This document shows positions 13,268 through 61,908 of a stretch of DNA of 64,000 bases, in pieces. The stretch lies in contig NZ_VISL01000001.1 of the NCBI RefSeq assembly GCF_007827465.1, forward strand, positions 749,001 to 813,000. The letters are read 5' to 3'. The notes under the pieces were generated by a model, which saw only the letters and a list, made by a program, of their open reading frames with translations, made no database searches and had not been told where the DNA came from. This DNA is from Dokdonia sp. Hel_I_53. GTDB taxonomy: Bacteria > Bacteroidota > Bacteroidia > Flavobacteriales > Flavobacteriaceae. Within the stretch, counting starts at the first letter, position 1, and each line of letters opens with the position of its first letter. The translations under genes were made by a program, and so were the position numbers.

Positions 13268-13281
13268 GCTTTCGCGAAAGC
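13268..13281. repeat. GCTTTCGCGAAAGC palindrome (copy 1)
   Basis: Exact core; symmetry extends to ACGCTTTCGCGAAAGCGT (13266-13283). It lies in the 5' leader of ychF, about 20 bp before its ATG. Confidence 0.9.
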
Positions 13282-13317
13282 GTAAATACATAAATTCACG
13301 GTTCTTTTTTTGGTGTG

Positions 13318-13325
13318 CAAAGATA
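13318..13325 (-). promoter_or_regulatory. TATCTTTG -7 box of ychF
   Basis: Perfect TAnnTTTG match (plus-strand CAAAGATA) 70 bp upstream of the ATG. Confidence 0.65.
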
Positions 13326-13471
13326 ATTCTAATTTTCAGATTTGTGTGACTAAAGATCAGAAAGCACAAAACAGCTGAAACTTGTGTTAATTTAAGTTAA
13401 TCACTCGCTCCTATTGTAAATTTTAGTAAAGTGTTACCATAGGGTTATACCTACTTAACAAAAGTTGCGTT

Positions 13472-13479
13472 TACATTTG
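13472..13479 (+). promoter_or_regulatory. TACATTTG -7 box of the 196-aa gene
   Basis: Perfect TAnnTTTG match 22 bp upstream of the ATG at 13502. Confidence 0.65.
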
Positions 13480-13501
13480 TAGCACTTTAAAACATAAGAC
13501 A

Positions 13502-14092
13502 ATGAAAAAAATATTTTATACGGCAGCATTTGCGTTATTAACAGTAGGAGTTGCACAAGCACAAGAAAAAATAGAGAAAACAGAAACAGTAAGAACGACC
13601 GTAAAGTCTTCTTTAGGAAATGAAACTGTTTACAAAACGACAAAAGAGACACAACTTACACCGGTAAAAATTGCCCCAGGACAGGAAGGTCAGGAAAATC
13701 AAGTCCAAGAGCGCGGTAGAACACTAGTGATGCGTGAAGTAACCTATACGTATAATGATACTGACTTCATGTTAGAAGAAAATGATAATGGATATACCAT
13801 CATGAGAACTCGTGAAAACGATAAGTCTCAGTATGGAACGATGCGTAGACTCTCTAAGGGTGATACTTATCTAACAAAAACAGCAGACGGGATTTCTGTA
13901 AGTTACTTTGATGAAAATGGAAATATGATTTCTGAAAAATATAATGATGAAGATGATATTGTAACAACCGTTACGTATAAGATGAAGCCTACGAAGATGA
14001 GCTCAATGAAAGATATGAAGGCTCAGAAGATGAAGGCTATGAAGGAGAAGAAGAAAATGAAATCAAAAAATAAAGATACTGAGAAGTATTAG
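13502..14092 (+). CDS. Secreted Lys/Met-rich protein of unknown function
   Basis: 196 aa with a signal peptide (MKKIFYTAAFALLTVGVAQA, then QEKIEKTE). The mature part is hydrophilic with short beta-like repeats (RTRENDKSQYGTMRR, GISVSYFDENGNMISEKY). The last 40 residues are dominated by Lys and Met (MKDMKAQKMKAMKEKKKMKS), strongly basic. No family recognised; a periplasmic or surface protein is likely. Monocistronic, with its own promoter box and terminator. Confidence 0.75.
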   Translation: MKKIFYTAAFALLTVGVAQAQEKIEKTETVRTTVKSSLGNETVYKTTKETQLTPVKIAPGQEGQENQVQERGRTLVMREVTYTYNDTDFMLEENDNGYTIMRTRENDKSQYGTMRRLSKGDTYLTKTADGISVSYFDENGNMISEKYNDEDDIVTTVTYKMKPTKMSSMKDMKAQKMKAMKEKKKMKSKNKDTEKY

Positions 14093-14126
14093 TCACATTT
14101 GATAGACAACTTTGGTTGGTTAGATC

Positions 14127-14153
14127 CCCGATATGAAAATATCGGGTTTCTTT
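14127..14153 (+). terminator. Terminator after the 196-aa gene
   Basis: Arms CCCGATAT (14127-14134) and ATATCGGG (14139-14146) followed by TTTCTTTTT. Convergent with the hydrolase gene to the right. Confidence 0.8.
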
Positions 14154-14158
14154 TTGCC

Positions 14159-18211: not shown

Positions 18212-18225
18212 GCTTTCGCGAAAGC
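18212..18225. repeat. GCTTTCGCGAAAGC palindrome (copy 2)
   Basis: Exact core with symmetric flank TGC...GCA, directly after the T-run of the terminator. Confidence 0.9.
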
Positions 18226-18338: not shown

Positions 18339-18352
18339 ATTTTCGCGAAAGC
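18339..18352. repeat. Degenerate palindrome ATTTTCGCGAAAGC
   Basis: Keeps the TTTCGCGAAAGC part; the left GC is replaced by AT, the same variant as at 32183. It lies between the terminator and the 60-aa gene. Confidence 0.7.
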
Positions 18353-20184: not shown

Positions 20185-21521
20185 TGAGATTGTTAGTGGT
20201 CTTTATGACCTTAATTTTGTCAAGCTCTACTGATGAGTTAGACTTGTATTCTTATTATAGAGACGTAACTGGAGATTTAACGTTTGAAGATGTAAAGTTT
20301 AAGAATTTTACAGATAGCAAGACTAATAATCTAGGAGCGGCTAATGGTGTCTATTGGTTCAAAATAAAGGAAAGTATAGGTCCGAGGTCGATCTTAGAAA
20401 TGCGTAGTGCCCATGTAAATGGATTGACATTATATGATAGCGCTAATACTGTTGTTCAACCTATGGATGACACGCGTTTTCCTTCATATTTTTTAATAAA
20501 TAAGCAGCTTACATACCCACTATATTTAAAATCTAACTTTCCATTAGAAGCATATTTCCCCATACACATATTAACAGAAAGTAGTTTTGCAAGCAATGAT
20601 AAGCATAGTTTTCTTGGAATAGGTTTATTTTACGGAACTGCAATTGCACTACTAATAGCCACACTTACGTTCTTTTTTATAGTTAGAAACACTCAATTTT
20701 TAGTGTTTGCTGTACTCATAGTGGCTATAATTTTAAGCGTTATTGGAAAAGATAATATTCTTTATTTCTTTAATTTTCCTTACGAAGTGTCATCAATTTT
20801 GGAAGCAGTGGGACATTGCATCGTAGGTCTTTCTGCCACATGTTTTATGATGTTTTATTTAAGAATTAGACCTCACCAGCAATGGATAAAATGGGCAATG
20901 CTTTCCATGAGCTCTGTATCTGTTCTAGCCCTTGTCATATTTGCAATATCTGGAAACCTGTATGCTTATTCAATTGTTGATATAAGCGGTTTAATAACCG
21001 TGGGATTCATGTGGGTACTTATCCTCATTATTGCAAAAGGAATAAGAAGGCTTACATTAGTATTTGTCTATAGCATTAATTTATTTTTTATTACAGACAT
21101 ATTCATTTTTCATACCTACGGTATTGAAATAGTAAAATTTGGTATTACTGGAATTTCAATTCTTGCAATTTCTAATTTTACTCTAATTGCCGTATTACTT
21201 TTATTCTCATTAAAGAATATCCAAACAAGCGGCGTGATTATGAAACATCGAATCAAATTGTATGTAGAGCGACTTAAGGAGCTTGATAATTACAAGATTA
21301 TTCAAGATGCAAATGACGAATATTTAGAGTCTCTTATCTACCAATATAAACTAGAAAATATAGAAGTTAAAGTGTTAGGTGATATATCTAAAGGGTTAAG
21401 CAATGATCATATCGCTCATAAATACAATCTTACAGAAGAAAAGCTTCAAAACATCACTAACGCCCTCTACTTAAAATTAGGGTTAGAATCTAGTAAAGAT
21501 ATTACCCAACTTGCACACTAG
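20184..21521 (+). CDS. Membrane-bound regulator: 7TMR-DISM-like sensor with C-terminal LuxR-like HTH
   Basis: 445 aa. Signal peptide (about 1-17); extracytoplasmic domain (about 18-145) with the 7TMR-DISM style (ANGVYWFKIKES, NGLTLYDSANT); seven hydrophobic helices (about 150-350); a short coiled linker (HRIKLYVERLKEL); and a cytoplasmic end EVKVLGDISKGLSNDHIAHKYNLTEEKLQNITNALYLKLGLES (described in pieces: a GerE-like helix-turn-helix). It would bind DNA from the membrane without a kinase. The 3' end overlaps convergent ccsBA by 20 bp. No neighbour suggests the ligand. Confidence 0.75.
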   Translation: MRLLVVFMTLILSSSTDELDLYSYYRDVTGDLTFEDVKFKNFTDSKTNNLGAANGVYWFKIKESIGPRSILEMRSAHVNGLTLYDSANTVVQPMDDTRFPSYFLINKQLTYPLYLKSNFPLEAYFPIHILTESSFASNDKHSFLGIGLFYGTAIALLIATLTFFFIVRNTQFLVFAVLIVAIILSVIGKDNILYFFNFPYEVSSILEAVGHCIVGLSATCFMMFYLRIRPHQQWIKWAMLSMSSVSVLALVIFAISGNLYAYSIVDISGLITVGFMWVLILIIAKGIRRLTLVFVYSINLFFITDIFIFHTYGIEIVKFGITGISILAISNFTLIAVLLLFSLKNIQTSGVIMKHRIKLYVERLKELDNYKIIQDANDEYLESLIYQYKLENIEVKVLGDISKGLSNDHIAHKYNLTEEKLQNITNALYLKLGLESSKDITQLAH

Positions 21522-24500
21522 TGCTTTTTGATTTCTTATAATGCTTTTTATATTTCCAAAAAGAAAGTATCCCAATTACAGCTATTACCGCTAATGATAT
21601 TAGTATTTTTTGACTAGCAATGTCTCCTCCACTTTGATATGCGTGGAGTCCTGATAAGTAATAATTCACACCAAAATAAGTGAATAAGATACTTCCTAGT
21701 GAAAGAATGGATAAAAAGTTAAATAACCATCTACCTCTCAATCCTGGAATTAATCGCATATGGATCACAAATGCATAGACGATGAGTGAAATCAAAGCCC
21801 ATGTTTCTTTAGGGTCCCAACCCCAATAACGCCCCCAACTTTCGTTAGCCCATTGCCCCCCTAGAAAGGTTCCTATGGCTAGTAATACCATCCCTACAGT
21901 AAGGGCCATTTCATTAATAATAGTAAGCTCCTTAATGTTAAGGTCCATTTTTTTCTTATTTTTCTCTGTCGTGAAAATCATTAAAAACAAAGAAACAAGT
22001 CCTAATATAGCTCCAAGCGTAAAAGGTCCATAACTAGCCACTATAACGGCTGTATGAATCATTAACCAATAACTATTGAGTACGGCTTGTAAATTTGCGA
22101 TTTCTGGATTCATCCAGTTCATAGAAGCTGCCCATAATATAAATCCAGCTACAAACGCAGTACTCGCTACAGTGAGCATACTTTTACGCCCAAAACCTAA
22201 CCCAAAGAACATTGTCGCCCATCCTACATATAGCACAGATTCATAGGCATCACTCCAAGGAGCATGACCAGAAATATACCATCTCCAGATAAGAGCACCA
22301 GTATGTATTGTAAAAAGAAGTATTACAAGTGCTAGGCCAATTTTAATCATTGTACTTACAAATCTGTTCTCTTTAAAAATAGCCGTTATAACAAACATCA
22401 TCATAAAGAAAGCCGCAAGCATATACATCCAGTACAGCTTTTTAAACACATCGTATTTGTTATACAAAATCTCTGCATCAACCTTCTCTGCAGAGGGCAT
22501 AATGTCATTACTATTCTTTCTTTGAAATTTTTCAATACCTGCAAGAACCTTATCCGCATCAGAATAGTCTCCAGAAGTTCTACCTTTCTTAAGACTTAAT
22601 AAATATGCAGGAAAGATCTGATTTGCTATGACAGAGTCTGTTGCTCTAAAGCCTGCGTCTTTCACTTCAATAGGTGATAGCCATTTATTATTAGCATCAT
22701 CAGGTTTTGGGAAAATTTTTAAAATTTCTTTAACCAGCGTTCGATCTAATAATCCAAGGCGCTGATCTACATCTGTAAACTCTTTTGCTATTTTTGTTTG
22801 ATTGATTTCTGCGTAGGCTTCTGGGAGAAAAGGAGCCAACTTGTAATTAAATGTAGGTTGGGTAAAAAAGTCTATTTGCTTAAAATATTTTCTGTCTGAG
22901 GGCACGCCCACAACGTTACGTAAACTATCATTCCCTTTTTTGAGGTAGATAAGTTCTGCAAATGTCCATATCTGTGGATTTTCCATCATAGACAACATGA
23001 CTTGATCTGCGGTTAATCCTTCGTAAGTATCACTCCTACTGAGTTTACGTAATAGCATACTAGAAAAAGTATTGATAGGCATCATACGGCCTCCATCTTC
23101 TTGTATTATAAGTCTACCAAACTTCTCTGCATGCGCTATTGGCACCGCATTTTCAACAATAAGCTTTTTGATTTCCTCTTGAGAAGGCATCGTCTGTTGA
23201 TGTGTCTCTGTAGTGTGACTATCCAGTCCTAGAATATCTCCTATATTTTCAGAGGAGGTAGCAATGGTGTCTTGAATAACTACATTCCCTTTAGATACCT
23301 CGTTAGAAGCACTTGACATGTCTTCTTGTGCGACTATTGTATTCGCTTTCGCGAAAGCGAACATAATTAAAAGTAATGCCAGCTTAGATTTTTTTACTTT
23401 TACTTTATCCAACATTCTTTTCAAATCTCCAAAACGTGATCCCTTATCAAACAAAATCATCATTAATCCTAAGTATAATAGGAAATAGCCAATGTAGGTT
23501 ACCCAAGTACCCCAGAAGTCATGGCTTACAGATAGGATTGTACCACTCTCATCAGGAAAAAAACTTGCTTGAAAAAAGCGAAATCCCTTATGATCTAATA
23601 CGTGATTCATATAAATATCATAATCAAACGTGTTCTCCGGATCCTCAACCGTAATCTTACTTTCAAAAGAAGCATAGCTGTTTTCAGTTCCAGGGTAGCG
23701 CTCTGCTATAAAGTCGTTTAATTTGATAGAAAAAGGCAGTGGTAAGGCCTTGCTCCCGTAAGAAAGATATAGCTTATGCCCGCCAATTTGTAGCTCTTTT
23801 TTATCATTACTATAACCACGACCACCTAATAAACCTATAGTTTTAGTCTCTCCATTAACAGACACGTTTACAAACAATGCATCTTCTTGAGTCTTTTCTT
23901 TGACCTCCTTTTCTACAATTCCAGTTTTACCTTTTATAGCAGGCTCAGGAATGACAAATTGTACACCGCCGCCTAAATTGTACAATGCTCTAAGATTGAG
24001 AGGAGCTTCTACGTTCTCGACTACTATACTTTCAGTTTGAGTTGCCATGACCGTATTAGTACCACCAAAGGGAGTCTTGATGGTATAATTTTCTCCATCA
24101 AAATTGATATTAACAGCACCATCTTGTGGAGCGTTAAATGCATAGAGCACATTATGAATACTTACCACTTCACCTTCTACAAGAAAATGTTCATGTCTTG
24201 TCCCGTCACCTGCTTCTACTATTTTGAGGTGATACACACCGTTTACATCTTCAACAAATCCATCTTCTGCGCCATCTATAAATTTATTAAATGAAAAAGT
24301 GAAATTTGTTTTATCATTTCTATCTGTTGTGCTGTGCGCAAAATCCTCTGTCCAAGTGAAATCATTATCTAGCCTTGGAGATAAGCTCAATTCCTTTTCG
24401 ATTTGACGACGCATAGGTTGCCCATTTTGCTCTCCATCAATAAAAACTTGTAAATATGTTTTCTCACTCAAAAAAGTGCTTTCTGAAGCTCCCTCCTCAA

Positions 24501-24828: not shown

Positions 24829-24851
24829 AAGACAGGCAAATTTTACCGGCG

Positions 24852-24859
24852 CAAAGATA
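24852..24859 (-). promoter_or_regulatory. TATCTTTG -7 box of ccsBA
   Basis: Perfect TAnnTTTG (plus-strand CAAAGATA) 23 bp upstream of the chosen ATG. Confidence 0.65.
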
Positions 24860-25023
24860 AACCACAGCGTTCTAATAACCTTAAATGTGTCATTCATAAA
24901 AATTGAAAGCTATGATGCTTACGTATGCTAATTGCACAGAATAAGTGTAGGGAATATTTTGGCAGGCTTTTTATCAATTTCTGATCCTTTTAATCAATGC
25001 CGCTACCCTATTTCTTTAAAGCT

Positions 25024-25037: not shown

Positions 25038-25808
25038 ATGACAACCATAAACATTATTGGTACTGGAAATGTGGCTTGGCACCTTGCAAGAGCTTTTGGC
25101 TCTAAAAATGAGGTTATTGTCATGCAAATTGCAGGTCGAAACCATAAAAAACTTGAAGCTTTTAAGGATTTTACACGTGAACTTGTGAGCATATCACAAC
25201 TCGTCCCTGCAGATGTGACAATAGTTGCTGTAAGTGACGATTCTATTAATAATGTATACAATAAAATACCTTTTCAGGATCAACTCGTGGTACATACCTC
25301 TGGTTTTACAGAAATGCTTTCGCGAAAGCATACAAGTAATCACACCGGTGTTTTTTATCCGTTACAAAGTTTTTCTAAAGAAGATACTGAGTTATCTTTT
25401 AAAGAAATCCCAATACTCATTGAGGCGGCTGATGATAAAAATGAAAAAACTTTAAGAGTTTTAGCTGATGTCATTAGTGATAACGTGCAAGTGATAAACA
25501 GTAATCAACGCAAGCATTTGCACCTTGCTGCTGTATTTGCAAATAACTTTACAAACTATTGTTATACCATTGCAGAGGATATTTGCAAGCAAAATGAAAT
25601 TCCCTTTGATACCTTACACCCGTTACTTTTAAAAACCTCAGAAAAGGCAATACAAAATGGACCTAAACAAAGTCAGACTGGTCCCGCTAAGCGTAATGAC
25701 TTAAACGTAATCAACACACAGCAAGAATTAATCAAAGATCCCACACACAAAAGGGTCTATGAGACAATAACAAAAGCAATACAACATTTGTATGGAGAAA
25801 AGCTATAA
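25038..25808 (+). CDS. Rossmann-fold DUF2520 oxidoreductase
   Basis: 256 aa from ATG 25038. N-terminal NADP-binding segment TTINIIGTGNVAWHLARAF (GxGNVA), with a C-terminal DUF2520 helical domain (LAAVFANNFTNYCYTIAEDI). Resembles pyrroline-5-carboxylate or ketopantoate reductase-type enzymes; substrate unknown. A TTG at 25029 is in frame but lies within the promoter box. First gene of a seven-gene operon; a palindrome copy inside it encodes MLSRKH. kdsC overlaps its end by 17 bp. Confidence 0.85.
   Translation: MTTINIIGTGNVAWHLARAFGSKNEVIVMQIAGRNHKKLEAFKDFTRELVSISQLVPADVTIVAVSDDSINNVYNKIPFQDQLVVHTSGFTEMLSRKHTSNHTGVFYPLQSFSKEDTELSFKEIPILIEAADDKNEKTLRVLADVISDNVQVINSNQRKHLHLAAVFANNFTNYCYTIAEDICKQNEIPFDTLHPLLLKTSEKAIQNGPKQSQTGPAKRNDLNVINTQQELIKDPTHKRVYETITKAIQHLYGEKL
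25316..25329. repeat. GCTTTCGCGAAAGC palindrome inside the DUF2520 gene (copy 4)
   Basis: Exact core with symmetric flanks (ATGC...GCAT, 25314-25331); encodes LSRK in frame. Confidence 0.9.
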
Positions 25809-27902: not shown

Positions 27903-28859
27903 ATGTTTGCTAGAAATAAGAACGTTCTTTTTACTCAAAAGATACTCCTTTTGTTAGGGTATGTTATATTCTTGAGTTTTACGGGATGCAAAGAAAATGT
28001 GGAGGATTCCCCCGCTTTCGCGAAAGCAAAAAAAGCCCCCCCCACTACCCTTTCTCCAGCTACCTCACAGCGCATATTATCACAAGAGTGGCAAGACTAT
28101 TGGTACGCGGGTAAAGCAGAAATCACATCATACAAACTCTCTCAGTCAAGGTATGGTCAACTGAGAGAAGGTACTGCTGCATTAATTTACGTGACAGAAG
28201 ATTTCCTGCCTAATGAGCAGGTAAAAGCAAATAGACAAGCGGCTAGTACTATTCCTGTTTTAAAACTTAACACCACAAAAAAATTTATAACAGGTATATA
28301 TCCTTACTCAGTGATGAACAGTACGTTTTATCCTGTAAAAGATGCAACACACGCTCTTAAAATATCGCAAAGCATTCAAGAGTGGTGTGGTCATGTATAT
28401 ATGCAATTAAATACTAGAGAAGATTTTAAAATTGACTCTCACTCATATTTTGAAGGAGAAGCAGATCAAAATGTAACTCTACCACTAGCTATTCTTGAGA
28501 ATGAGCTCTGGACGCAAATACGCCTCAACCCAGCAGCATTACCTACAGGGAAGCTTGATATAATTCCAAATTTTGAGTTTATCCAAATGCGACACGCAGA
28601 ACTCAAAGCCTATAGCGCAACAGCTACTTTGAACGAAGATAAGTATGTGATTGAATATTCAAAACTTAAAAGGAAAGTTACCATCTTTTTTAATCCCCTG
28701 TTTCCTCATATCATAGAAGGTTGGGAAGAAACCTACCAAGATACACGAGGTGGATCTGTAATGACAACCTCTGCAAAGAAAATCACCACTATAAAAAGTG
28801 ATTATTGGAATAAAAATCGCACTGCAGACGAATATTTGCGAGAAAATCTAGAGTTATAA
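27903..28859 (+). CDS. Lipoprotein of unknown function downstream of maf
   Basis: 318 aa from ATG 27903. Hydrophobic leader with lipobox FTGC (Cys29). The mature protein starts with a low-complexity stretch PAFAKAKKAPP, whose AFAKA is encoded by a palindrome copy, followed by a globular domain (SQEWQDYWYAGKAEITSY, EWCGHVYMQLN, FFNPLFPHIIEGWEE). A TTG 48 bp upstream would extend it into the maf end but spoil the signal peptide. Conserved next to maf in related bacteria as far as I recall; function unknown. Confidence 0.8.
   Translation: MFARNKNVLFTQKILLLLGYVIFLSFTGCKENVEDSPAFAKAKKAPPTTLSPATSQRILSQEWQDYWYAGKAEITSYKLSQSRYGQLREGTAALIYVTEDFLPNEQVKANRQAASTIPVLKLNTTKKFITGIYPYSVMNSTFYPVKDATHALKISQSIQEWCGHVYMQLNTREDFKIDSHSYFEGEADQNVTLPLAILENELWTQIRLNPAALPTGKLDIIPNFEFIQMRHAELKAYSATATLNEDKYVIEYSKLKRKVTIFFNPLFPHIIEGWEETYQDTRGGSVMTTSAKKITTIKSDYWNKNRTADEYLRENLEL
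28014..28027. repeat. GCTTTCGCGAAAGC palindrome inside the lipoprotein gene (copy 5)
   Basis: Exact core, encodes AFAKA just after the lipidated Cys region. Confidence 0.9.
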
Positions 28860-30631: not shown

Positions 30632-33166
30632 ATGCGCAAAACGTATTTTTTTCTCTTTGTGTTGACTATTTTCGCTTTCGCGAAAGCATACTCACAAGGA
30701 ATAACGCTTCAGCCCAAAAAGCCAACTGCGAGCGAAATATATAACGACCTACAAAAACTTAATTTCTTAGGATCTGTACTTTATATCGCAGCACATCCTG
30801 ATGATGAGAATACCACTGCTATCTCCTACTTTGCAAATACTGTAAAAGCCAGAACTGCTTATTTATCCTTAACACGTGGTGATGGAGGGCAGAATATTAT
30901 AGGTCCAGAGCTACGAGAAAAGTTAGGCGTCATCCGTACACAAGAACTACTAGCCGCAAGGGCTACAGACGGTGGGGAACAGCTTTTTACCAGAGCAAAT
31001 GATTTTGGCTATTCAAAACATCCAGATGAAACATTAGCAATTTGGAATAAGGAAGAAGTTTTAGGAGATGTGGTATGGGCCATTCGTACTTTTCAGCCAG
31101 ATGTAATTATAAATAGATTTGACCATCGCTCACCAGGCAGTACCCACGGTCACCATACATCTAGTGCCATGCTCGCGGTTGAAGCATTTGATCTTGCTGA
31201 AGACAAAACAAAATACCCAGATCAACTAGTTTACACAGACACCTGGCAACCTAAACGACAATTTTTCAACACTTCGTGGTGGTTTTATGGAAGTAGAGAG
31301 AATTTTGAAAAAGCAGATAAATCAAAACTTGTAAAAATTGATGTAGGAACTTATTACCCAAGTTTAGGATTATCAAACACAGAAATTTCTTCTTTAAGCC
31401 GTAGCCAGCACAAATCCCAAGGTTTTGGTAATACAGGAAGTCGCGGTGCGAGCGATACTTATTTTGAATTGCTACGCGGAGAAATGCCCTCTAATAGTAA
31501 TTTATTTCAAGGGATAGATACCTCTTGGAATCGTGTAAAAGGAGGAGAACCTATTCAAAATATTATTGACAAAATTATCGCTAGTTATAATTTTAAGGCT
31601 CCTGTGGAGAGCGTGCCATTACTTGTGAAAGCTTATACGCTGGTCCAAGATTTAGAAAATGAGCATTGGAAAAAAAATAAAACAGAAGAATTAAAAAATT
31701 TGATAGTCGCTTGCTCAGGTCTATATCTCGAAGCGACCTCAAACATTGCAACCGCTACTGTAGGTTCATCAATGATACTAAATGTAGAAGCTATAAATAG
31801 AAGTAACCAAATGGTTCAACTTAAAAGTGTTATTATAACGCCCACGAAAGCTCTCACAAATGTTGATACTACTTTAATGAACAATAATCGTTTCAATACA
31901 GAAATTCCTACAACAATTTCAGAGGATTTTAAAGACACTTCTGCGTATTGGCTTCGAGAAGAAGGAACTTTAGGAATGTATAAAGTGGCAGATCGCAGGA
32001 TGATAGGCAAGCCGGAAACACCACAAAAAAACACAGTCGTTTTTAATCTTTCAGTAGCAGGAGTTGATATTGCAGTAGAAAGGCCTATTGTATTTAAATA
32101 TAATGATCGGGTGAAGGGAGAGGTATACGAGTCTTTTGAAGTCACACCTCCTGTTTCGGCAAAAGTTGATGCAAAAGTTATCATTTTCGCGAAAGCGGAA
32201 TCAAAAGAAATCCCAGTTACCGTTACCGCACATAAAGAAAACCTTACGGGAATTGTTACACTAGATGTGCCTAAAGATTGGAAAGTTTCTCCAAGGAGTT
32301 ATCCCATAAATAATACTTCAATAGGAACAAATAACGTCTTTAATTTTACGGTTACTCCTCCCACTGGAAATAGTGGAGGTAGTATATCTCCAAAAGTTTT
32401 AGTAGCGGGTAAAAACTATGCAAAAGAATTAGTCCTTATTGACTATGCTCATATTCCAAAACAATCACTGTTTTTGCCTAATACTGCTAGAGTTGTGCGT
32501 TTAGATATTGAGCGTAAGGGGGACTACATAGGTTACATTCAGGGCGCTGGTGATGCTGTACCAGAAAACCTTGAACAAATAGGATATCAGGTTGCCGTCA
32601 TAGACCCAGATGTAATGACGGCAGATATGTTATCACAATTTGACGCTGTTGTTATAGGTATAAGGGCTTACAATGTTATTAAGTCACTACAAACTAAACA
32701 GCCACTACTTCTTGAGTACGTAAAAAATGGCGGGACACTTATCACACAATATAATACATCTGGTCGCTGGGCAAATACAAACGTCGGAGCTCCGTATGAT
32801 TTAAAATTGAGTAGAGATCGCGTCACTGATGAAAATAGCGAAGTCCGTATTCTCAAAAAAGATCATCCACTCATGTCATTTCCCAATGAGATTACAACAA
32901 AAGACTTTGAGGGATGGACACAAGAGCGAGGTTTGTATTTTCCAAATGAATGGTCCTCAGAATTTACCCCCCTACTCTCTATGAATGATAAAGGTGAATC
33001 TCCTAAGCTAGGTAGCTTGCTAGTTGCACCTTATGGTGAAGGACATTATATATATACAGGCTTGAGCTTCTTTAGAGAATTGCCCGCTGGTGTTTCTGGT
33101 GCCTACAAGCTTTTTGCAAATATGTTAAGCATAGGAAAACAAGAAATAAAAGATATAAAGCAATAA
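30632..33166 (+). CDS. Secreted PIG-L family deacetylase with C-terminal class I GATase-like domain
   Basis: 844 aa. Signal peptide MRKTYFFLFVLTIFAFAKAY, whose FAFAKA comes from a palindrome copy. Zinc deacetylase motif AHPDDE (54-59), DGGQNIIG, and the distal metal His in STHGHHTSSAM. The middle (about 380-620) has NEW3-like immunoglobulin folds; the C-terminal 200 residues (QIGYQVAVIDPDVMTADMLS, YVKNGGTLITQYNT) look like a ThuA/GATase-type fold. Probably deacetylates an amino sugar conjugate outside the cytoplasm; the substrate is unknown. Four bases after its stop a 35-aa gene starts. Confidence 0.9.
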   Translation: MRKTYFFLFVLTIFAFAKAYSQGITLQPKKPTASEIYNDLQKLNFLGSVLYIAAHPDDENTTAISYFANTVKARTAYLSLTRGDGGQNIIGPELREKLGVIRTQELLAARATDGGEQLFTRANDFGYSKHPDETLAIWNKEEVLGDVVWAIRTFQPDVIINRFDHRSPGSTHGHHTSSAMLAVEAFDLAEDKTKYPDQLVYTDTWQPKRQFFNTSWWFYGSRENFEKADKSKLVKIDVGTYYPSLGLSNTEISSLSRSQHKSQGFGNTGSRGASDTYFELLRGEMPSNSNLFQGIDTSWNRVKGGEPIQNIIDKIIASYNFKAPVESVPLLVKAYTLVQDLENEHWKKNKTEELKNLIVACSGLYLEATSNIATATVGSSMILNVEAINRSNQMVQLKSVIITPTKALTNVDTTLMNNNRFNTEIPTTISEDFKDTSAYWLREEGTLGMYKVADRRMIGKPETPQKNTVVFNLSVAGVDIAVERPIVFKYNDRVKGEVYESFEVTPPVSAKVDAKVIIFAKAESKEIPVTVTAHKENLTGIVTLDVPKDWKVSPRSYPINNTSIGTNNVFNFTVTPPTGNSGGSISPKVLVAGKNYAKELVLIDYAHIPKQSLFLPNTARVVRLDIERKGDYIGYIQGAGDAVPENLEQIGYQVAVIDPDVMTADMLSQFDAVVIGIRAYNVIKSLQTKQPLLLEYVKNGGTLITQYNTSGRWANTNVGAPYDLKLSRDRVTDENSEVRILKKDHPLMSFPNEITTKDFEGWTQERGLYFPNEWSSEFTPLLSMNDKGESPKLGSLLVAPYGEGHYIYTGLSFFRELPAGVSGAYKLFANMLSIGKQEIKDIKQ
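30674..30687. repeat. GCTTTCGCGAAAGC palindrome in the PIG-L signal peptide (copy 6)
   Basis: Exact core, frame AFAKA, within the signal-peptide hydrophobic core and cleavage region. Confidence 0.9.
32183..32196. repeat. Degenerate palindrome ATTTTCGCGAAAGC inside the PIG-L gene
   Basis: Same AT-for-GC variant as at 18339; reads IFAKAES in frame. Confidence 0.7.
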
Positions 33167-35000: not shown

Positions 35001-35014
35001 GCTTTCGCGAAAGC
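35001..35014. repeat. GCTTTCGCGAAAGC palindrome (copy 7)
   Basis: Exact core, 10 bp after the symporter stop and 67 bp before the oxidoreductase ATG. Confidence 0.9.
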
Positions 35015-39411: not shown

Positions 39412-39908
39412 AATATTAAAGGTTGATGATAATTAATAAATTTAAATTATAGCCCTATGAATGGGTTATCTCAAAGGTAAATTTTTATTAGAATGCTTTC
39501 ACGAAAGCGTAAACTCCTAATTGAAAATTCATATACAAAAGAAAGGTATACTTTATTAATAAATTATACAGCGCATGACTTTCTTTGTTCCAGACACTTA
39601 ACTCGTTGTACCTCTTATTAACAAATTAAATGTTCCCACACTAATTATTCCTATGGTTAACATTGATAATAACCAACATAGTCCAAATGAAAATATTAGA
39701 ATTGGAAACATAAGGCAGGGAATAAAAACTTGCTTGGCAATTTTAAACACAAAATTGTAAAGATTTAATATAATAAATGCTGGATGGCAAACTCAGGATG
39801 CATAAAATCATAAATATTAAATCAATATTAATTACAAATAGACAAATTAAAGAAATTGTAAGACCACGCAATTCGCTGTATGAAATATCCTAAGGTAAAC
39901 TTTAGATT
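39412..39908. other. Long intergenic region
   Basis: About 500 bp without a credible gene. It holds one degenerate palindrome copy (39495-39508) and AT-rich sequence; no clear terminator for the lipoprotein or the TonB receptor was found. Confidence 0.5.
39495..39508. repeat. Degenerate palindrome GCTTTCACGAAAGC
   Basis: One substitution (G to A) in the centre of the core. Confidence 0.75.
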
Positions 39909-42071
39909 CTATAAATTATCTAGCTGGTTAGAAGTTTTATCATCACTTATCGTCCAGAAGAAGCCTACAAAGAAAAATTGATCTGTGGCAGGCCTTAATG
40001 CTTTGCGATTAAAGCTCCCTGTAGCACTAGGGCTCTCTGCATATTGATAGCCATTAATATTTCTAAAGCCTAAAACATTTTGTACTGATGCGTAAATAAT
40101 TTTTTGAGGACCTAATAAATAAGCCCAATTCACACTAAGACTATTAAAAGACTTTGTATTTGATTGTAAAAATCCCCCTTGATTTTTATCTGTATAAGTG
40201 CGACCAGAGCTATGCTGGAAACTAAACCCCACTTGCGATTTCCAATCGTCTATAAAATATTTTGTTACAACAGATATATTATGAGGACTGGCAAAAGATG
40301 GTCGGGCTTTACTAGGGAAATTCAAATACTTCCTTTCAGAATCAAGGTATGAGTAACTAATCCAATAGTCCATATTTTTTATACTCGTATTATCCCTCCA
40401 GAAAAAATCTATTCCCTGAGCATATCCAGCACCTACATTACTGAAAGTAGTCTCTGGCTCTATAAATTCAGAATTATAGGTAATGAGGTTACTATATGTT
40501 TTACGATATGCCTCAGCACGAAAAATCCTACCATTGTTGCTATACTGATAATTTGCAATATAATGTGATGTTTTCTGAGGGGTTACCTCTTGACTAAATT
40601 TTAAAAAATCACTTTGAGGGTTCTGGTAGAAGTCTCCGTAAGCAAGAGATAATTGACTATTCTTCCCAGTTTTGTAAGCGATGCTCGCTCGAGGTGAGAA
40701 AGTGAAATCTCCCATATAATCTGTATACTGCGTTCTTGCACCTAATTTGATCGCAAAATCACGAGAAAAAATAATATCACTTTCAGCAAAGAATGCGGTG
40801 ATGTTACTTAGGTAGTTATACGCTTGATGTATAGCTTCACCATCTATACTACCTTTAAATTCTTCAGAAAAATCTGTTGTAAAATGTTCTGTCCCAAAAG
40901 CAAATTTTACTTGATTTGAAAATCGTTTTTTCATTTTTAATTTAAGATGAGCACTGTGTTGTGTATTGTCAATCGTTGTAGATTGTGGGGATATACGGTT
41001 TCGCGCAAGCGTATAACTTCCTCCTGTATGTAGTGTCCACGCATCACTAAGTACTTCTGTATAATTTGTATTTAAATAGAGGTTTCTATTTTTTAAAGCA
41101 AAATCAAACCCTTCTGGATTATTGATGTCTTCTTGAGTCGTTTTAAAATTTGTAGTATCTCCAGCAAGGTACATCTTAAAAAGTCCGTTAGCTGTCCGGT
41201 AGCGATAGACAGCCTCTCCAGAAAGTACTTCAAAAGGTTTTTGCCATGTATCTCTTACAGGGAAAATAGCATTATAAGCTGCTAGGTTGAGGTAAGATGT
41301 ACTTAGCGATAAAGAACTCTTGTTCCATTTACGAGTGAGTCCTAACCCGCCTCCTAGTGACATTATGGATATGTCTGTTTTATTTTGATCTGGTTCATCT
41401 ATCGTATTTAGTAATAAAACACTTGATAGTGCCTCTCCATATTCTGCAGAGTAACCTCCCGTAGAAAATGTAATACCGTCAAAGAGGAATGGGCTATAGC
41501 GTCCTCTAGCTGGGACATTGTTTGAAGTGGCGGTGTAAGGTGTAAATACTCGTATCCCATCTATAAAAATTTGCGTTTCTCCTGCATCACCACCTCTTAC
41601 AAATAAGCGACCATCCTCTGCGACTGTAGTTGTACCCGGCAAGGTTTGTAATGCTCCTACAAAATCTCCTAATGCGCTTGCTGTAGTGACAACATCTAAA
41701 GGTTTTAAAACTGAAACTTTACTATTATCACTAGCTTCAAATGTACCAGCAGAAAGCACTACTGTAGCTAGAGAGTTTACATCCTCCTTTAATGTTATCT
41801 TTAAATTAGTATAGAAGCGAACGTCCATAAACTGTTCGTAAGGCTCATAAGAGAGATACGTAACTTTAAATAATTGTTCTCCCACTTCTGTGGTCGTAAA
41901 TGAAAAATACCCATTATCATTCGTACTAGCACCATCATAGGTGCCCTCTAAAAATACATTTGCACCCACTATAGGGATTCCCCTTTTATTGATAACAACA
42001 CCAGAGATTTCTGTTTGGGCCACGACAGTAGTTAAGCTAAAAAAAAGGAATGTGAGAATTGAAAATTTCAT
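39909..42071 (-). CDS. TonB-dependent outer-membrane receptor with CarboxypepD_reg domain
   Basis: 720 aa. Signal peptide (1-18); CarboxypepD_reg-like domain (about 19-105: ISGVVINKRGIPIVGANVFLEG); plug domain (about 110-225: VTTASALGDFVGALQTLPGT, LFVRGGDAGETQIFIDGIRV); and a beta-barrel to the end (last strand FFFVGFFWTISDD). The substrate is unknown; there is no SusD partner next to it, so a siderophore, vitamin or other small ligand is more likely than a glycan. A degenerate palindrome at 40997 lies in the barrel. Confidence 0.93.
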   Translation of the reverse strand: MKFSILTFLFFSLTTVVAQTEISGVVINKRGIPIVGANVFLEGTYDGASTNDNGYFSFTTTEVGEQLFKVTYLSYEPYEQFMDVRFYTNLKITLKEDVNSLATVVLSAGTFEASDNSKVSVLKPLDVVTTASALGDFVGALQTLPGTTTVAEDGRLFVRGGDAGETQIFIDGIRVFTPYTATSNNVPARGRYSPFLFDGITFSTGGYSAEYGEALSSVLLLNTIDEPDQNKTDISIMSLGGGLGLTRKWNKSSLSLSTSYLNLAAYNAIFPVRDTWQKPFEVLSGEAVYRYRTANGLFKMYLAGDTTNFKTTQEDINNPEGFDFALKNRNLYLNTNYTEVLSDAWTLHTGGSYTLARNRISPQSTTIDNTQHSAHLKLKMKKRFSNQVKFAFGTEHFTTDFSEEFKGSIDGEAIHQAYNYLSNITAFFAESDIIFSRDFAIKLGARTQYTDYMGDFTFSPRASIAYKTGKNSQLSLAYGDFYQNPQSDFLKFSQEVTPQKTSHYIANYQYSNNGRIFRAEAYRKTYSNLITYNSEFIEPETTFSNVGAGYAQGIDFFWRDNTSIKNMDYWISYSYLDSERKYLNFPSKARPSFASPHNISVVTKYFIDDWKSQVGFSFQHSSGRTYTDKNQGGFLQSNTKSFNSLSVNWAYLLGPQKIIYASVQNVLGFRNINGYQYAESPSATGSFNRKALRPATDQFFFVGFFWTISDDKTSNQLDNL
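40997..41010. repeat. Degenerate palindrome GGTTTCGCGCAAGC inside the TonB receptor gene
   Basis: Two differences from the core; flanks ACG...GT keep the extended palindrome pattern. Encodes part of TLARNR. Confidence 0.5.
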
Positions 42072-42120: not shown

Positions 42121-42134
42121 GCTTTCGCGAAAGC
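42121..42134. repeat. GCTTTCGCGAAAGC palindrome (copy 8)
   Basis: Exact core, CGC...GCG symmetric, in the 121-bp gap between the divergent TonB receptor and the YdeI/DUF1801-like gene. Confidence 0.9.
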
Positions 42135-42192
42135 GCAACTCACTCAACTGTTATTTTATAATGATCAATTGTATTTTTTGTATTTTAAACCT

Positions 42193-42786
42193 ATGACAAA
42201 AGCAGAAAAAATATCCGATTTTTATTCCAAACCATCTCCATGGAAAACTGGTATTGCAGACTTAAGAAAACTTGTCCTAGATGCGGGCCTTAAAGAAGAC
42301 TGGAAGTGGAGTTTTCCAACATATACCTATAAGGGTAAAAATGTAGTAGGAATTGCAAGTTTTCAAAATCATTTTGGCCTTTGGTTTTTTCAAGGAGCCC
42401 TTCTTACAGACAAAAAAAAGCAACTTAGAAATGCACAAGAAGGAAAAACCAAAGCGATGCGTCACCTTATTTACACATCTTATGAAGAATTAAACCCCAC
42501 AATCGCTTTAAAATTTATAGACGAAGCGATAGAAAATGCAAAACAAGGTAAGAAAGTACAAAGTACACCTACTCAATCTAAAGTAGTTCTTCCTATAATG
42601 CTTAAAAATGCATTATTAAATGACGCACAACTACAACTCAATTTTGACGCTTTATCTTCAAGTAAACAAAGAGAGTATGGAATGTATATTAATGAAGCTA
42701 AGCAAGAGGCCACAAAGCAAAGGAGACTTGAAAAGTGTATTCCATTAATTTTAAATGGAAAAGGACTTAACGATACCTATAGATAA
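42193..42786 (+). CDS. DUF1801/YdeI-like protein
   Basis: 197 aa from ATG 42193. The N-terminal half (DFYSKPSPWKTGIADLRKL, WKWSFPTYTYKGKNVVGIASFQNHFGLWFFQGALL) is DUF1801-like; the C-terminal half (LNFDALSSSKQREYGMYINEAKQEATKQRRLEKCIPLI) matches the YdeI / OmpD-associated tail, whose SxxxxEY segment is typical. Function unknown. An open frame runs 252 bp further upstream, through the palindrome and antisense to the TonB gene, and is not credible. The next DUF1801 gene starts 2 bp after its stop. Confidence 0.85.
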   Translation: MTKAEKISDFYSKPSPWKTGIADLRKLVLDAGLKEDWKWSFPTYTYKGKNVVGIASFQNHFGLWFFQGALLTDKKKQLRNAQEGKTKAMRHLIYTSYEELNPTIALKFIDEAIENAKQGKKVQSTPTQSKVVLPIMLKNALLNDAQLQLNFDALSSSKQREYGMYINEAKQEATKQRRLEKCIPLILNGKGLNDTYR

Positions 42787-45416: not shown

Positions 45417-45430
45417 GCTTTCGCGAAAGC
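45417..45430. repeat. GCTTTCGCGAAAGC palindrome (copy 9)
   Basis: Exact core in the 5' leader of the plsC-like gene, between its promoter box and its ATG. Confidence 0.9.
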
Positions 45431-47689: not shown

Positions 47690-47703
47690 GCTTTCGCGAA
47701 AGC
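47690..47703. repeat. GCTTTCGCGAAAGC palindrome (copy 10)
   Basis: Exact core extended to TACGCTTTCGCGAAAGCGTA (47687-47706), about 50 bp upstream of the trmH-like promoter box. Confidence 0.9.
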
Positions 47704-53035: not shown

Positions 53036-53049
53036 GCTTTCGCGAAAGC
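53036..53049. repeat. GCTTTCGCGAAAGC palindrome (copy 11)
   Basis: Exact core, 40 bp upstream of the hydrolase ATG, between divergent genes. Confidence 0.9.
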
Positions 53050-59107: not shown

Positions 59108-59471
59108 TAAATCAGAACTAAAAACACATAGCTATAAAGCCTTCAAATGTAATTTCACTTTATAGTATTATCCCTTATTCATTAAGGTTTCTAAACTATA
59201 TAAAGGTTTTACAGTTTGTTCATACCACAAGATCTCTAGCCTATAGGAATCATAGATATCTTATTTACACTACCTTCTCCAGAAAGAAGCTTTAATAAAA
59301 CAAAAAGTTTCTAACAGAATCCATCACCATGTTAGAGGTAGTACTATAAAGCCAACAGCGAGCAACAAGCACGGACTTGCAACGTATAGCCCGATCCTTT
59401 TTTTCTATCGGGTAACCCCAAAAGAGTTTATTGTAAACGCTATTAAACTCAAATCTAGCTTACATCCTTAA
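59108..59471. other. Intergenic region with a CCCGAT/ATCGGG inverted repeat
   Basis: 364 bp. The only structure is CCCGAT (59390-59395) and ATCGGG (59407-59412) with a T-rich loop, perhaps a terminator, next to AACAAGCACGGACTTGCAAC. Nothing else seen. Confidence 0.4.
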
Positions 59472-60653
59472 TTAAAGTTTACGTCTTTTCTTTTCCGCTT
59501 TGAGAAGTTCCAATTCACGGTTTGTTTGTCCAGCTACAGATGTGTTCTCTTCTGCACGGCGTATTAAGTATGGCATTACATCTTTAACAGGGCCAAAAGG
59601 CATATATTTTGCTACATTATATCCTTTATCTGCAAGATTAAAACTTATGTGATCACTCATTCCATACAATTGTCCAAACCAAACACGCTCGTCATTTACC
59701 GCTAACCCTATCTCATGCATAATCTCCGTGGCAAGTAAACAACTATCCTCATTATGCGTACCTAAGAATGGTGACATGTCTTTTATATGGTCAAATATAT
59801 AACGGAGGGTGTGGTTAAAATTTTTGTCTGTAGCAGCTTTATTTGCGCAAATGGGAGTCAGGTATCCTTTTTCTAAGGCTCGCTGGTTTTCTTTTTCCAT
59901 ATAAGCTCCCCTTACGATCTTCACTCCTACTCTAAAATCTCTTTCTATGCCTTCTGCATGTAACTTTTTAAGATAGTCTAATCTATCGTGACGATAGCAT
60001 TGTAAGGTGTTATACACAATAGCTTTCTCTTTGTTATATTTTGCCATCATTTCTGTGACAAGTGTATCTGCAGCATCTTGTATCCAACTTTCTTCTGCGT
60101 CAATGAGGATTTCAATATCACAATCATAAGCTGTTTTACAGATAAGATCGACACGCTCTTTAACTCTTTTCCATTCCCGCTGTTCTGTTTCTGTAAGCGA
60201 TTTCTTCTCGTTTACTTTTTGCCATAAAGCAAATCTTCCTACACCAGATGGTTTAAAAACAGAGATAGGCATCGCTTCTTTATGCTCGCTGAATTTCGTG
60301 AGACTGATTACCTTATTCATACATTGATCAAAAGAGGAATCTTCCTCTTTTCCTTCTACAGAATAATCTAATACGGAGCATACGTTTGCTTCGTAAAGCT
60401 TATCAACGGTACTCATACAATCATCTTCATTTACACCTCCACAAAAATGATCAAACACAGTAGAACGTATCAATCCCTCTACTGGTAGGTTTGCATTAAG
60501 CGCAAAGCGTGTAACTGCAGTTCCTATGCGCACTAGCGGCTGTTTTGATATCATTTTAAACAAGAAATAAGCGCGTTCTAATTCACTATCAGACTTTAAT
60601 GCAAAAGCATTTTTTGTGTTCTCAAAGAGAGATGACGTTAAAGTATCGTTCAT
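59472..60653 (-). CDS. Proline dehydrogenase
   Basis: 393 aa FAD enzyme (first step of proline to glutamate). Marks: EILIDAEESWIQDAADTL, IVYNTLQCYRHDRLDYL, GVKIVRGAYMEKE, FLGTHNEDSCLLA and YMPFGPVKDVMPYLIRRAEEN, the classic PRODH barrel blocks. The size is that of the monofunctional enzyme. It is divergent from aroB, with a TATATTTG box at 60689-60696. Confidence 0.94.
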   Translation of the reverse strand: MNDTLTSSLFENTKNAFALKSDSELERAYFLFKMISKQPLVRIGTAVTRFALNANLPVEGLIRSTVFDHFCGGVNEDDCMSTVDKLYEANVCSVLDYSVEGKEEDSSFDQCMNKVISLTKFSEHKEAMPISVFKPSGVGRFALWQKVNEKKSLTETEQREWKRVKERVDLICKTAYDCDIEILIDAEESWIQDAADTLVTEMMAKYNKEKAIVYNTLQCYRHDRLDYLKKLHAEGIERDFRVGVKIVRGAYMEKENQRALEKGYLTPICANKAATDKNFNHTLRYIFDHIKDMSPFLGTHNEDSCLLATEIMHEIGLAVNDERVWFGQLYGMSDHISFNLADKGYNVAKYMPFGPVKDVMPYLIRRAEENTSVAGQTNRELELLKAEKKRRKL

Positions 60654-60688
60654 TTTTTAATTATAAATTTAGATGCTCCAGAGCATTA

Positions 60689-60696
60689 CAAATATA
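60689..60696 (-). promoter_or_regulatory. TATATTTG -7 box of the proline dehydrogenase gene
   Basis: Perfect TAnnTTTG (plus-strand CAAATATA) 35 bp upstream of the ATG. Confidence 0.6.
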
Positions 60697-60760
60697 CGAG
60701 CAGTTAAGAGTGTTTTATCTAAAAAGTGAGTAATTTGCTATTTTAAAATTTCACATTCAA

Positions 60761-61834
60761 ATGACCCCAATTTCTGCAGCTTCTTACGATATTGTTTTTA
60801 ATAATTCTGGGTATACGGCACTTAACAAATTTCTTAAATCGAGTGCTTATAGCGGTATTTATATAATTGTAGACACAAACACGCATGAACATTGCCTAGC
60901 TTCTTTTTTAGGCAATTTAGATACAGACTTACCTATTGAAGTAATTGAAATCACTCCGGGTGAAATTCATAAAAATATCGAAACTTGTACAGGCGTATGG
61001 CATAGCCTGGCAGATCTTAATGCAGATCGTAAGGCAGTCGTTATAAATGTGGGAGGAGGTGTTGTGACAGACCTCGGTGGATTTGTCGCAAGCACTTTCA
61101 AAAGAGGAATGGATTTTATAAACGTACCTACTTCTCTACTCGCCATGGTAGATGCAAGCGTGGGTGGTAAGACGGGTGTGGATTTAGGGACGCTCAAAAA
61201 TTTGATTGGCATCATAAATAATCCTCAACTGGTACTTATAGATGGTGGTTTTCTATCCACTTTACCTAAAAATGAATTACGATCTGGCCTTGCAGAAATG
61301 TACAAACATGGTCTAGTTGTAAATAAACCATACTGGGATCAATTAAAAGACTTAAGTGGGTTATCCATAGATGATCTTAATAGACTAATCTATGAAAGTA
61401 TTAGTATCAAAAATAAAATTGTCCTTCAAGATCCCACAGAGCAAAACATCCGAAAAACATTAAATTACGGCCACACTTTAGGCCATGCTATTGAGTCTTA
61501 TTGTTTGGACAAAGATGATAAACGCACCTTATTACATGGTGAAGCCATTGCTATTGGGATGATACTGGAGAGTTATATTTCTATGAGAATTACTGGTCTG
61601 AACGAACAACATCTTACAGAAATTTGTGCTGTTTTTACAGAACTCTATGATCAGGTAATGTTCAACCAAAAAGATATAGGGCATATCATAGAGTATCTTA
61701 AATACGACAAGAAAAACACTAATGGCAATGTGAATTTTGTATTGCTAGAAACTATAGGTAAAGCTGTAATTGATCAAAAAGTATCAAATACAATTATCTA
61801 TGAGGGGTTTGACTTTTATAAATCTCTAGCTTAA
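60761..61834 (+). CDS. aroB: 3-dehydroquinate synthase
   Basis: 357 aa, second enzyme of the shikimate pathway; NAD- and metal-dependent. Marks: NVGGGVVTDLGGFVASTFKRG, PTSLLAMVDASVGGKTGVD, GLAEMYKHGL, LNYGHTLGHAIE (metal His), LLHGEAIAIGM. Complete. Monocistronic, followed by a palindrome copy. Confidence 0.96.
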   Translation: MTPISAASYDIVFNNSGYTALNKFLKSSAYSGIYIIVDTNTHEHCLASFLGNLDTDLPIEVIEITPGEIHKNIETCTGVWHSLADLNADRKAVVINVGGGVVTDLGGFVASTFKRGMDFINVPTSLLAMVDASVGGKTGVDLGTLKNLIGIINNPQLVLIDGGFLSTLPKNELRSGLAEMYKHGLVVNKPYWDQLKDLSGLSIDDLNRLIYESISIKNKIVLQDPTEQNIRKTLNYGHTLGHAIESYCLDKDDKRTLLHGEAIAIGMILESYISMRITGLNEQHLTEICAVFTELYDQVMFNQKDIGHIIEYLKYDKKNTNGNVNFVLLETIGKAVIDQKVSNTIIYEGFDFYKSLA

Positions 61835-61894
61835 TAAAGGATTCGAAGCCGTTGTCAAACAATCTACATGGTTATTTTAATATACTTTAAATAC

Positions 61895-61908
61895 GCTTTC
61901 GCGAAAGC
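61895..61908. repeat. GCTTTCGCGAAAGC palindrome (copy 14)
   Basis: Exact core extended to TACGCTTTCGCGAAAGCGTA (61892-61911), in the convergent gap between aroB and the DinB-like gene. Confidence 0.9.

What the first reader, a model, noticed from the sequence alone, without database searches (positions are those of the whole stretch)
13268..61908. A 14-bp palindrome GCTTTCGCGAAAGC occurs 14 times exactly and 5 times degenerately, only right of 13 kb
Exact copies start at 13268, 18212, 23345, 25316, 28014, 30674, 35001, 42121, 45417, 47690, 53036, 54166, 58069 and 61895. Near copies are at 18339, 32183, 39495, 40997 and 63592. A random 64-kb sequence should hold none. Symmetry often extends to 18-20 bp with differing but still palindromic flanks (TACGC...GCGTA, ATGC...GCAT, TTCGC...GCGAA), suggesting that symmetry itself is kept. 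This behaves like the cyanobacterial HIP1 or like a genome-wide protein-binding site (nucleoid, segregation, mismatch or uptake signal), but its function is unknown to me.
Basis: seen in the sequence. Interest (0 to 1): 0.85.

Follow-up and report, generated by a model that had tools for sequence, protein, structure and literature searches.

The report
Genome-wide palindrome in marine flavobacteria
The same 14-letter DNA palindrome sits hundreds of times, evenly spaced and kept nearly letter-perfect, in the chromosomes of the marine bacteria Dokdonia and Nonlabens and one further genus but in almost none of the relatives sampled, and it most likely marks the cell's own DNA for a protein that is still unknown.

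Summary
Confirmed. GCTTTCGCGAAAGC occurs 14 times exactly and 5 times with 1-2 mismatches in the window; the genome (2.93 Mb, one contig) holds 700 exact copies and none of the reversed control. 'Only right of 13 kb' is a local 14.6-kb gap with restriction-modification genes; copies continue to the left. 18/18 Dokdonia and 23/23 Nonlabens genomes hold 288-905 copies; its core stands at 459 copies in one more genus and at 0-30 in the other 234 Flavobacteriaceae genera sampled. Copies rarely lie within 1 kb of each other, show no origin-terminus gradient, occur in CDS in all three frames but prefer intergenic DNA of every kind, differ between species by substitutions that sometimes change conserved proteins, and are conserved. 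The symmetric footprint reaches about 20 bp beyond the core on each side. parS, terminator, mobile-repeat and restriction-site readings fail. Best reading, unproven: a self-DNA signal spread by biased uptake (DUS-like); main rival: a chromosome-maintenance site for an unknown dimeric protein. The reader protein was not found, nor any paper with the 12-bp core (open-access library).

The parts
13268..13281 (.). exact palindrome, intergenic, 20 bp upstream of ychF (12153-13247, - strand)
18212..18225 (.). exact palindrome, intergenic, 58 bp after the M16 peptidase gene
18339..18352 (.). near copy ATTTTCGCGAAAGC (2 mismatches)
23345..23358 (.). exact palindrome inside CDS 21502-24897 (-), encodes AFAKA
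25316..25329 (.). exact palindrome inside a CDS, encodes LSRK
28014..28027 (.). exact palindrome inside a CDS, encodes AFAKA
30674..30687 (.). exact palindrome inside CDS 30632-33166 near its start, encodes AFAKA
32183..32196 (.). near copy ATTTTCGCGAAAGC (2 mismatches)
35001..35014 (.). exact palindrome, intergenic, 9 bp after a stop codon (gene ends at 34991)
39495..39508 (.). near copy (1 mismatch)
40997..41010 (.). near copy (2 mismatches), inside ORF 39909-42071
42121..42134 (.). exact palindrome, scored intergenic by my gene caller (lies in a listed GTG-start ORF 41941-42786)
45417..45430 (.). exact palindrome, scored intergenic by my gene caller (overlaps the start of a listed TTG-start ORF)
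47690..47703 (.). exact palindrome, intergenic
53036..53049 (.). exact palindrome, intergenic, 39 bp before a start codon
54166..54179 (.). exact palindrome, intergenic, 3 bp before a start codon
58069..58082 (.). exact palindrome, intergenic
61895..61908 (.). exact palindrome between convergent genes (aroB and 61924-62442)
63592..63605 (.). near copy (1 mismatch, outermost base)
1..13267 (.). palindrome-free stretch, part of a 14.6-kb gap (genome 747616 to 762268); holds a GmrSD-domain gene and type I specificity and modification genes; tRNA at 11339-11423 (-)

Best explanation
A chromosomal self-recognition signal. Shown: about 700 copies of a strict 14-bp palindrome inside a symmetric footprint of roughly 55 bp, differing between species by substitution, kept far more constant than neutral DNA, spaced so that two rarely fall within 1 kb, placed mostly where they harm genes least, missing from one stretch with restriction-modification genes and from the two fetched Nonlabens phages, and found in three lineages of one family. 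Inferred: a sequence-specific dimeric DNA-binding protein reads the site during natural transformation. DNA fragments carrying the site would be taken up or processed preferentially and recombined into the chromosome, so sites would accumulate by molecular drive until about one per recombining fragment (a few kb) is reached. This is the logic of neisserial DUS and Haemophilus USS, here with a palindromic signal and a flavobacterial transformation machinery. The reader protein and the uptake bias have not been shown.
For: Count and control: 700 v 0. Distribution: 18/18 Dokdonia, 23/23 Nonlabens, one more genus, 234 others at 0-30 core copies. Even spacing: 6 of 253 gaps below 1 kb against about 57 expected; in 464 kb of G000 2 observed v 22.5 in a null that keeps the CDS/intergenic share, 0 of 3000 as low. 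Permissive places: 45/107 in CDS (82.5% expected), enriched 3-5x alike in tandem, convergent and divergent gaps; 19 of 62 lie within 16 bp after a stop, 1 of 60 within 16 bp before a start. Differences between species by substitution, with protein change, in parallel in two genera. Constraint: 2 changed bases of 224 in a close pair against about 21 expected (expectation is my arithmetic). Nonlabens phages P12024S/L: 0 copies in 71 kb (about 17 expected at host density). Uptake genes: a DUF5689 protein in 30/30 genomes, an HhH protein in 30/30, a CarboxypepD_reg outer-membrane protein beside DUF5689 in 20/20 stretches, G000 included, matching by domain the pair and HhH protein essential in R. 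anatipestifer (PMC8459023). R. columbina is reported to prefer its own DNA (PMC7965970 section 16). Uptake signals are described as relatively evenly spread, rare in newly acquired and constrained DNA, and explicable by drive alone (PMC7811141, passages).
Against: No sign of competence in these genera was found: the one search for it listed 10 of 105 papers, none holding Dokdonia or Nonlabens. Known uptake signals are not palindromes (PMC1939737, passages). Exact copies outnumber one-mismatch copies 155:24, like HIP1 in Synechocystis (5648:1830) and unlike the A. pleuropneumoniae uptake sequence (438:947; table in PMC1939737). For neisserial DUS, recent copies are said to come by recombination rather than point mutation (PMC2397512, passages); my species comparison shows substitution and cannot separate the two. 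Trees of the candidate receptor pair follow the species or are noisy and do not join the three motif lineages, so no specificity gene was found; the machinery is equally present in genera without the motif. Some phage contigs carry the site, which fits prophages in the donor pool but also an intracellular function. ComEC, DprA and ComF were not checked in this genome.
Confidence: 0.43

Rival explanations
1. An intracellular chromosome-maintenance site: an unknown dimeric protein binds about 700 evenly spaced sites to organise the nucleoid, or the site acts as a bidirectional, Chi-like recombination or repair signal whose 5' flank on each strand is G/T-rich, the composition RecA is recalled to favour.
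For: Perfect palindrome, so probably a dimer; symmetric footprint of roughly 55 bp with C 0.07 against 0.168 in control intergenic flanks and a 3-base T phase; even spacing; uniform over the replichores; one per 4.2 kb, of the order of E. coli Chi (1008 copies, table in PMC1939737); present in phage contigs, one with an integrase; strict core.
Against: No ori or ter bias, unlike parS, Noc or MatP sites (recalled). Chi sites are short and oriented (recalled). Selection for a new structural site would have to start from a handful of copies. No reader found.
Confidence: 0.34
2. A HIP1-like element: an iterated palindrome maintained together with an orphan DNA methyltransferase that methylates an internal sequence such as TCGCGA or CGCG.
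For: Iterated perfect palindrome with few one-off copies (HIP1 table in PMC1939737), differing by substitution, as the title of Robinson 1997 says for HIP1 (reference list of PMC4390886).
Against: No PF00145 match in 7 of 16 motif genomes, this one included; no PF01555 match in 9 of 16, this one included, and only sub-cut-off matches in 2 more. TCGCGA outside exact copies is 70, of which 34 in TTCGCGAA; the remaining 36 equal the Markov expectation of 36.7. Other methylase families not tested.
Confidence: 0.09
3. A transcription-factor operator of a very large regulon.
For: Palindrome, intergenic preference.
Against: Convergent gaps are enriched as much as divergent ones; 42% of copies lie in CDS; copies avoid one another; density is uniform.
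Confidence: 0.05
4. Not exclusive of the above: an ancestral system lost in most genera rather than passed between them.
For: Genera g96 and g164 (two genomes each) have 18-27 copies of CTTTCNNGAAAG against 3-6 reversed controls, possibly remnants; g164 is sister to motif-bearing G252.
Against: Requires several independent losses, though the rooting is weak and sampling sparse; remnants were not inspected.
Confidence: 0.4

Closest known systems
DNA uptake sequences (Neisseria DUS, Haemophilus USS)
   Same: Hundreds of copies, even spacing, permissive or intergenic preference, presence in CDS, shared by several related species (papers)
   Different: Perfect 14-bp palindrome with a symmetric footprint of about 55 bp; far fewer one-mismatch copies (v the table); no uptake assay; Bacteroidota
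HIP1 (GCGATCGC) of cyanobacteria
   Same: Iterated palindrome, few one-off copies, changes by substitution
   Different: Longer, sparser, other sequence; no conserved PF00145 or PF01555 methylase
Chi recombination hotspots
   Same: Similar density; G/T-rich 5' flank on each strand
   Different: Palindromic, 14 bp, copies avoid each other
parS / Noc sites
   Same: Palindrome with TTTC and GAAA halves
   Different: Two or three normal parS coexist with the motif in all 15 motif genomes examined

Membership tests
DNA uptake sequence (DUS/USS) | strong genomic over-representation | tested here: met
   700 v 0 control; 155 in 704 kb, 0 in four third-order Markov simulations of that size
DNA uptake sequence (DUS/USS) | more even spacing than random | tested here: met
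DNA uptake sequence (DUS/USS) | rare in newly acquired DNA | tested here: inconclusive
   one gap with restriction-modification genes and 0 in two Nonlabens phages, but other phage contigs carry copies
DNA uptake sequence (DUS/USS) | organism has transformation machinery | tested here: inconclusive
   outer-membrane/DUF5689 pair and HhH protein present; ComEC, DprA, ComF not tested in G000
DNA uptake sequence (DUS/USS) | fragments with the motif are taken up preferentially | not testable with these tools
   needs a bench assay
HIP1 | sequence GCGATCGC in a cyanobacterium | tested here: not met
   one GCGATCGC in the window; genome is Dokdonia
HIP1 | methyltransferase able to modify the repeat | tested here: inconclusive
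   PF00145 and PF01555 absent in G000; other methylase families not tested
parS / ParB | canonical sequence, few copies near oriC | tested here: not met
REP / MITE mobile repeat | copies inserted with conserved longer sequence | tested here: not met
   six of eight aligned CDS positions show the site with no gap between carriers and non-carriers, two have gaps nearby; flanks differ
Intrinsic terminator | hairpin plus T tract, at gene 3' ends | tested here: not met
   flank after the core is A/C-rich, not T-rich; divergent gaps enriched too
Chi site | short oriented sequence recognised by RecBCD/AddAB | not testable with these tools
   a palindrome has no orientation; no enzyme assay

The most novel reading that the evidence does not exclude
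A new class of genome-wide DNA address in Bacteroidota: a palindromic site of about 55 bp read by an unknown dimeric protein that is shared by three lineages which are not sisters in my tree (moved between them, or kept from an ancestor and lost elsewhere), causing chromosomes, and prophages living in them, to fill with sites at a self-limiting spacing. As far as I recall it would be the first abundant uptake signal outside Neisseriaceae and Pasteurellaceae and the first palindromic one, or else a chromosome-organising site of a kind not yet described.
Probability: 0.6. Interest if true: 0.85.

Novelty: new variant of a known kind. Interest (0 to 1): 0.76.

Why it matters
A 14-bp perfect palindrome at 700 copies is longer and stricter than the iterated genomic palindromes I know of (recalled), and it goes with changes in conserved enzymes (one recognised by eye as phosphoglycerate kinase). 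If it is an uptake signal it would explain how these flavobacteria tell self DNA from foreign DNA and would give the flavobacterial transformation machinery a sequence specificity; if not, it points to an undescribed chromosome-binding system.

Tried and rejected
ParB rewiring: GTTCCACGTGGAAC was absent in 8 of 8 motif genomes and present in 16 of 18 others, which looked like a switched parS; the wider pattern GTTNCACGTGNAAC showed 2-3 normal parS in all 15 motif genomes tested, ParB_N is in 30/30 genomes, and ParB is conserved in Dokdonia and G252 and in four Nonlabens genomes that a filter had missed (68-71% identical). Rejected.

Restriction-site reading: TCGCGA is neither avoided nor enriched outside the motif and TTCGCGAA. 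Terminator, operator, mobile repeat, methylase: see the other fields. Ori/ter effect: rho -0.10, p 0.56, 35 bins of 20 kb.

Receptor co-transfer: trees of the DUF5689 protein, the outer-membrane protein and the neighbouring nuclease-family proteins do not unite the motif lineages. De novo search for a substitute palindrome in one stretch each of other genomes (20 asked, 4 came back as short runs of N, 2 were motif genera, 1 the G029 block) found none of similar strength apart from parS.

Mini-hairpin: GCGAAAGC, half of the palindrome, is recalled as an unusually stable DNA mini-hairpin; standard folding gives nothing for it, papers were listed only; not followed.

Papers: no paper holds CTTTCGCGAAAG; ten hold TTTCGCGAAA, of which I saw titles and passages of one (PMC8034619: words absent from the human genome); Dokdonia or Nonlabens with 'palindrom' gave 5 and 7 papers, none on this by title; one search gave none. 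The library is open-access only.

On checking, I lowered the uptake reading from 0.45 to 0.43 and raised the two next rivals by 0.01 each because the mismatch table speaks against it.
Full report
WHAT IS THERE. The 14 exact and 5 near copies are at the stated positions. The window is bases 749001-813000 of a single-contig genome of 2.93 Mb, which holds 700 exact copies and none of the reversed pattern, one per 4.2 kb. Window genes tested belong mostly to ordinary families. The genus is Dokdonia: of 38 DNA matches to the named loci (themselves chosen for the motif) the nine best go to Dokdonia, and congener G010 has a contig of 1,616,484 bases, the length of a Dokdonia pacifica contig. Genus g11 is Nonlabens by the same token (G080 contig of 1,129,740 bases, as in N. 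xylanidelens).

DISTRIBUTION. 18 of 18 Dokdonia genomes (own included) hold 369-905 copies and 23 of 23 Nonlabens genomes 288-857. A count of CTTTCNNGAAAG in 397 genomes of the family found hundreds only in g1, g11 and the one genome of g210 (459); the other 234 genera had 0-30, mostly close to the reversed control, with an excess in g96 and g164 (18-27 v 3-6). G029 (g13) has 6 exact copies, all within about 92 kb of one contig and with similar flanks: probably acquired DNA. None of 23 genomes of other families of the order had a copy.

THE SITE. In 704 kb of this genome (24%) there are 155 exact copies and 24, 28 and 39 with one, two and three mismatches, against 0, 0.5, 1 and 15 in a third-order Markov model. 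One-mismatch copies mostly differ in the outermost base (13 of 24). Flanks add TTAC-core-GTAA. Beyond that, on each side the strand that reads into the palindrome is poor in C (0.07 v 0.168 in control intergenic flanks) and rich in G and T at positions 4-19, with T favoured at 7, 10 and 13 over the bases between (difference 0.087, 95% interval 0.038-0.136; 186 flanks). The signature fades by about position 25-30, is much the same in Dokdonia, Nonlabens and phage contigs, and is weaker in the eight G252 sites. Both strands are averaged, so gene direction cannot cause it. I infer a protein complex covering about 55 bp.

WHERE COPIES SIT. 45 of 107 lie in CDS against 82.5% expected; tandem, convergent and divergent gaps are enriched 3.3, 4.5 and 3.7 times (my arithmetic). 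All three reading frames are used (21, 12, 12 in G000); in a pooled set of related species the AFAKA frame dominates (156, 32, 46 in the order). Copies are frequent right after stop codons (19 of 62 within 16 bp) and rare right before starts (1 of 60). Gaps below 1 kb: 2 of 93 in G000, 4 of 125 in other Dokdonia, 0 of 35 in Nonlabens, against 21, 29 and 7.6 expected; keeping the CDS share does not change this. Counts per 20 kb do not depend on distance from the parS pair at 2.005 Mb, taken as the origin region (rho -0.10).

HOW COPIES COME AND GO. Around gidA, 20-kb stretches of 15 motif genomes hold 3-6 copies each, five non-motif genomes none. In codon alignments of five genes there are eight positions with a copy; at six, carriers and non-carriers align without gaps in the printed stretch, at two gaps lie nearby. 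In gene 09 (by eye phosphoglycerate kinase) several non-carriers read FAKQL or FAEQL where carriers in both Dokdonia and Nonlabens read AFAKAL; genes 02, 06 and 10 show similar changes. Single-base variants of a copy are seen in G003, G005, G011 and G069. In the G005/G007 pair (59,760 aligned bases), 14 of 16 alignable copies are identical and 2 of 224 bases changed, against about 21 expected from local divergence (9.1% intergenic, 21.7% third positions). So copies are actively kept. Whether new copies arise by mutation on the spot or by import from relatives cannot be told from this.

RELATIONSHIP OF CARRIERS. A tree of seven proteins (22 taxa) places Nonlabens apart from Dokdonia and joins G252 with motif-free G206 (bootstrap 100), so carriers are not one clade; some nodes are weak (51-73) and sampling is sparse.

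PHAGES. The motif has host-like flanks in a set of virus contigs: 40 copies in 305 kb over 13 records chosen for having hits, 24 distinct contexts in the 19 stretches compared. Of ten proteins from five of these contigs, hits include portal, capsid, terminase, baseplate and integrase; the fifth contig gave only an unknown-function family. Two Nonlabens phages without an annotated integrase, P12024S and P12024L, have no copy even at two mismatches; nor do stretches of two Cellulophaga phages that share one protein each with the positive contigs. The hosts' own motif content was not checked. I infer that DNA residing in the chromosome acquires sites.

WHAT READS IT. Not ParB. No PF00145 or PF01555 methylase in this genome. 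Transformation genes found in Riemerella (PMC8459023: abstract, sections 17 and 19, passages) have domain matches here: a CarboxypepD_reg outer-membrane protein beside a DUF5689/DUF5017 protein and an endonuclease-family gene, and an HhH protein. They are equally present in the motif-free genomes tested and their trees give no hint of shared specificity. R. columbina prefers its own DNA; the most frequent 7- to 10-base words its authors list are A/T-rich (PMC7965970 section 16).

INTERPRETATION. Published uptake signals share even spread, permissive placement, rarity in acquired DNA and a drive explanation that needs no benefit (PMC7811141; also PMC1939737, which however calls them not even enough for compaction, and PMC2397512; passages only). 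The drive argument matters: a new structural protein gains little from a few chance sites, whereas biased uptake fills a genome unaided. That is why I put the uptake reading first (0.43) over an intracellular site (0.34). Against it stand palindromy and the low share of one-mismatch copies, which resembles HIP1 more than an uptake sequence (v the table). Palindromy, strictness and the long footprint speak for a dimeric protein in either case.

NOVELTY. No paper holding the 12-bp core was found and none linking Dokdonia or Nonlabens to such a palindrome by title, in an open-access library only. As a kind it belongs with HIP1, DUS and Chi (the three classes named in PMC4390886, passages), but it matches none of them in full.

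Noticed in passing
window 2664-8288: GmrSD-domain gene and type I specificity and modification subunits, palindrome-free, within a 14.6-kb gap.
   Followed up: partly
G029 contig C18, about 82640-174392 (L261, L416-L418): A block of about 92 kb with 6 palindromes and similar flanks in a genome otherwise without them, some 6 kb from a 616-aa ParB-like frame: probably an acquired element.
   Followed up: partly
L302 and L303-L321: All 20 flavobacterial genomes have at least two parS; in nearly all, a pair about 1.9 kb apart flanks the gene I take for gidA, with C/T drift at the fourth base and its partner.
   Followed up: yes
genera g96 and g164: CTTTCNNGAAAG 18-27 copies against 3-6 reversed: possible remnants of a lost system.
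   Followed up: no
L384:8962-10371: The DUF5689 protein beside the outer-membrane transformation gene evolves fast and its tree conflicts with the genera within Dokdonia and Nonlabens.
   Followed up: partly
flanks of the palindrome: T favoured every third base (7, 10, 13) on the strand reading into the palindrome, also in intergenic copies; unexplained.
   Followed up: partly
window 18339 and 32183: Two near copies share the same degenerate form ATTTTCGCGAAAGC.
   Followed up: no
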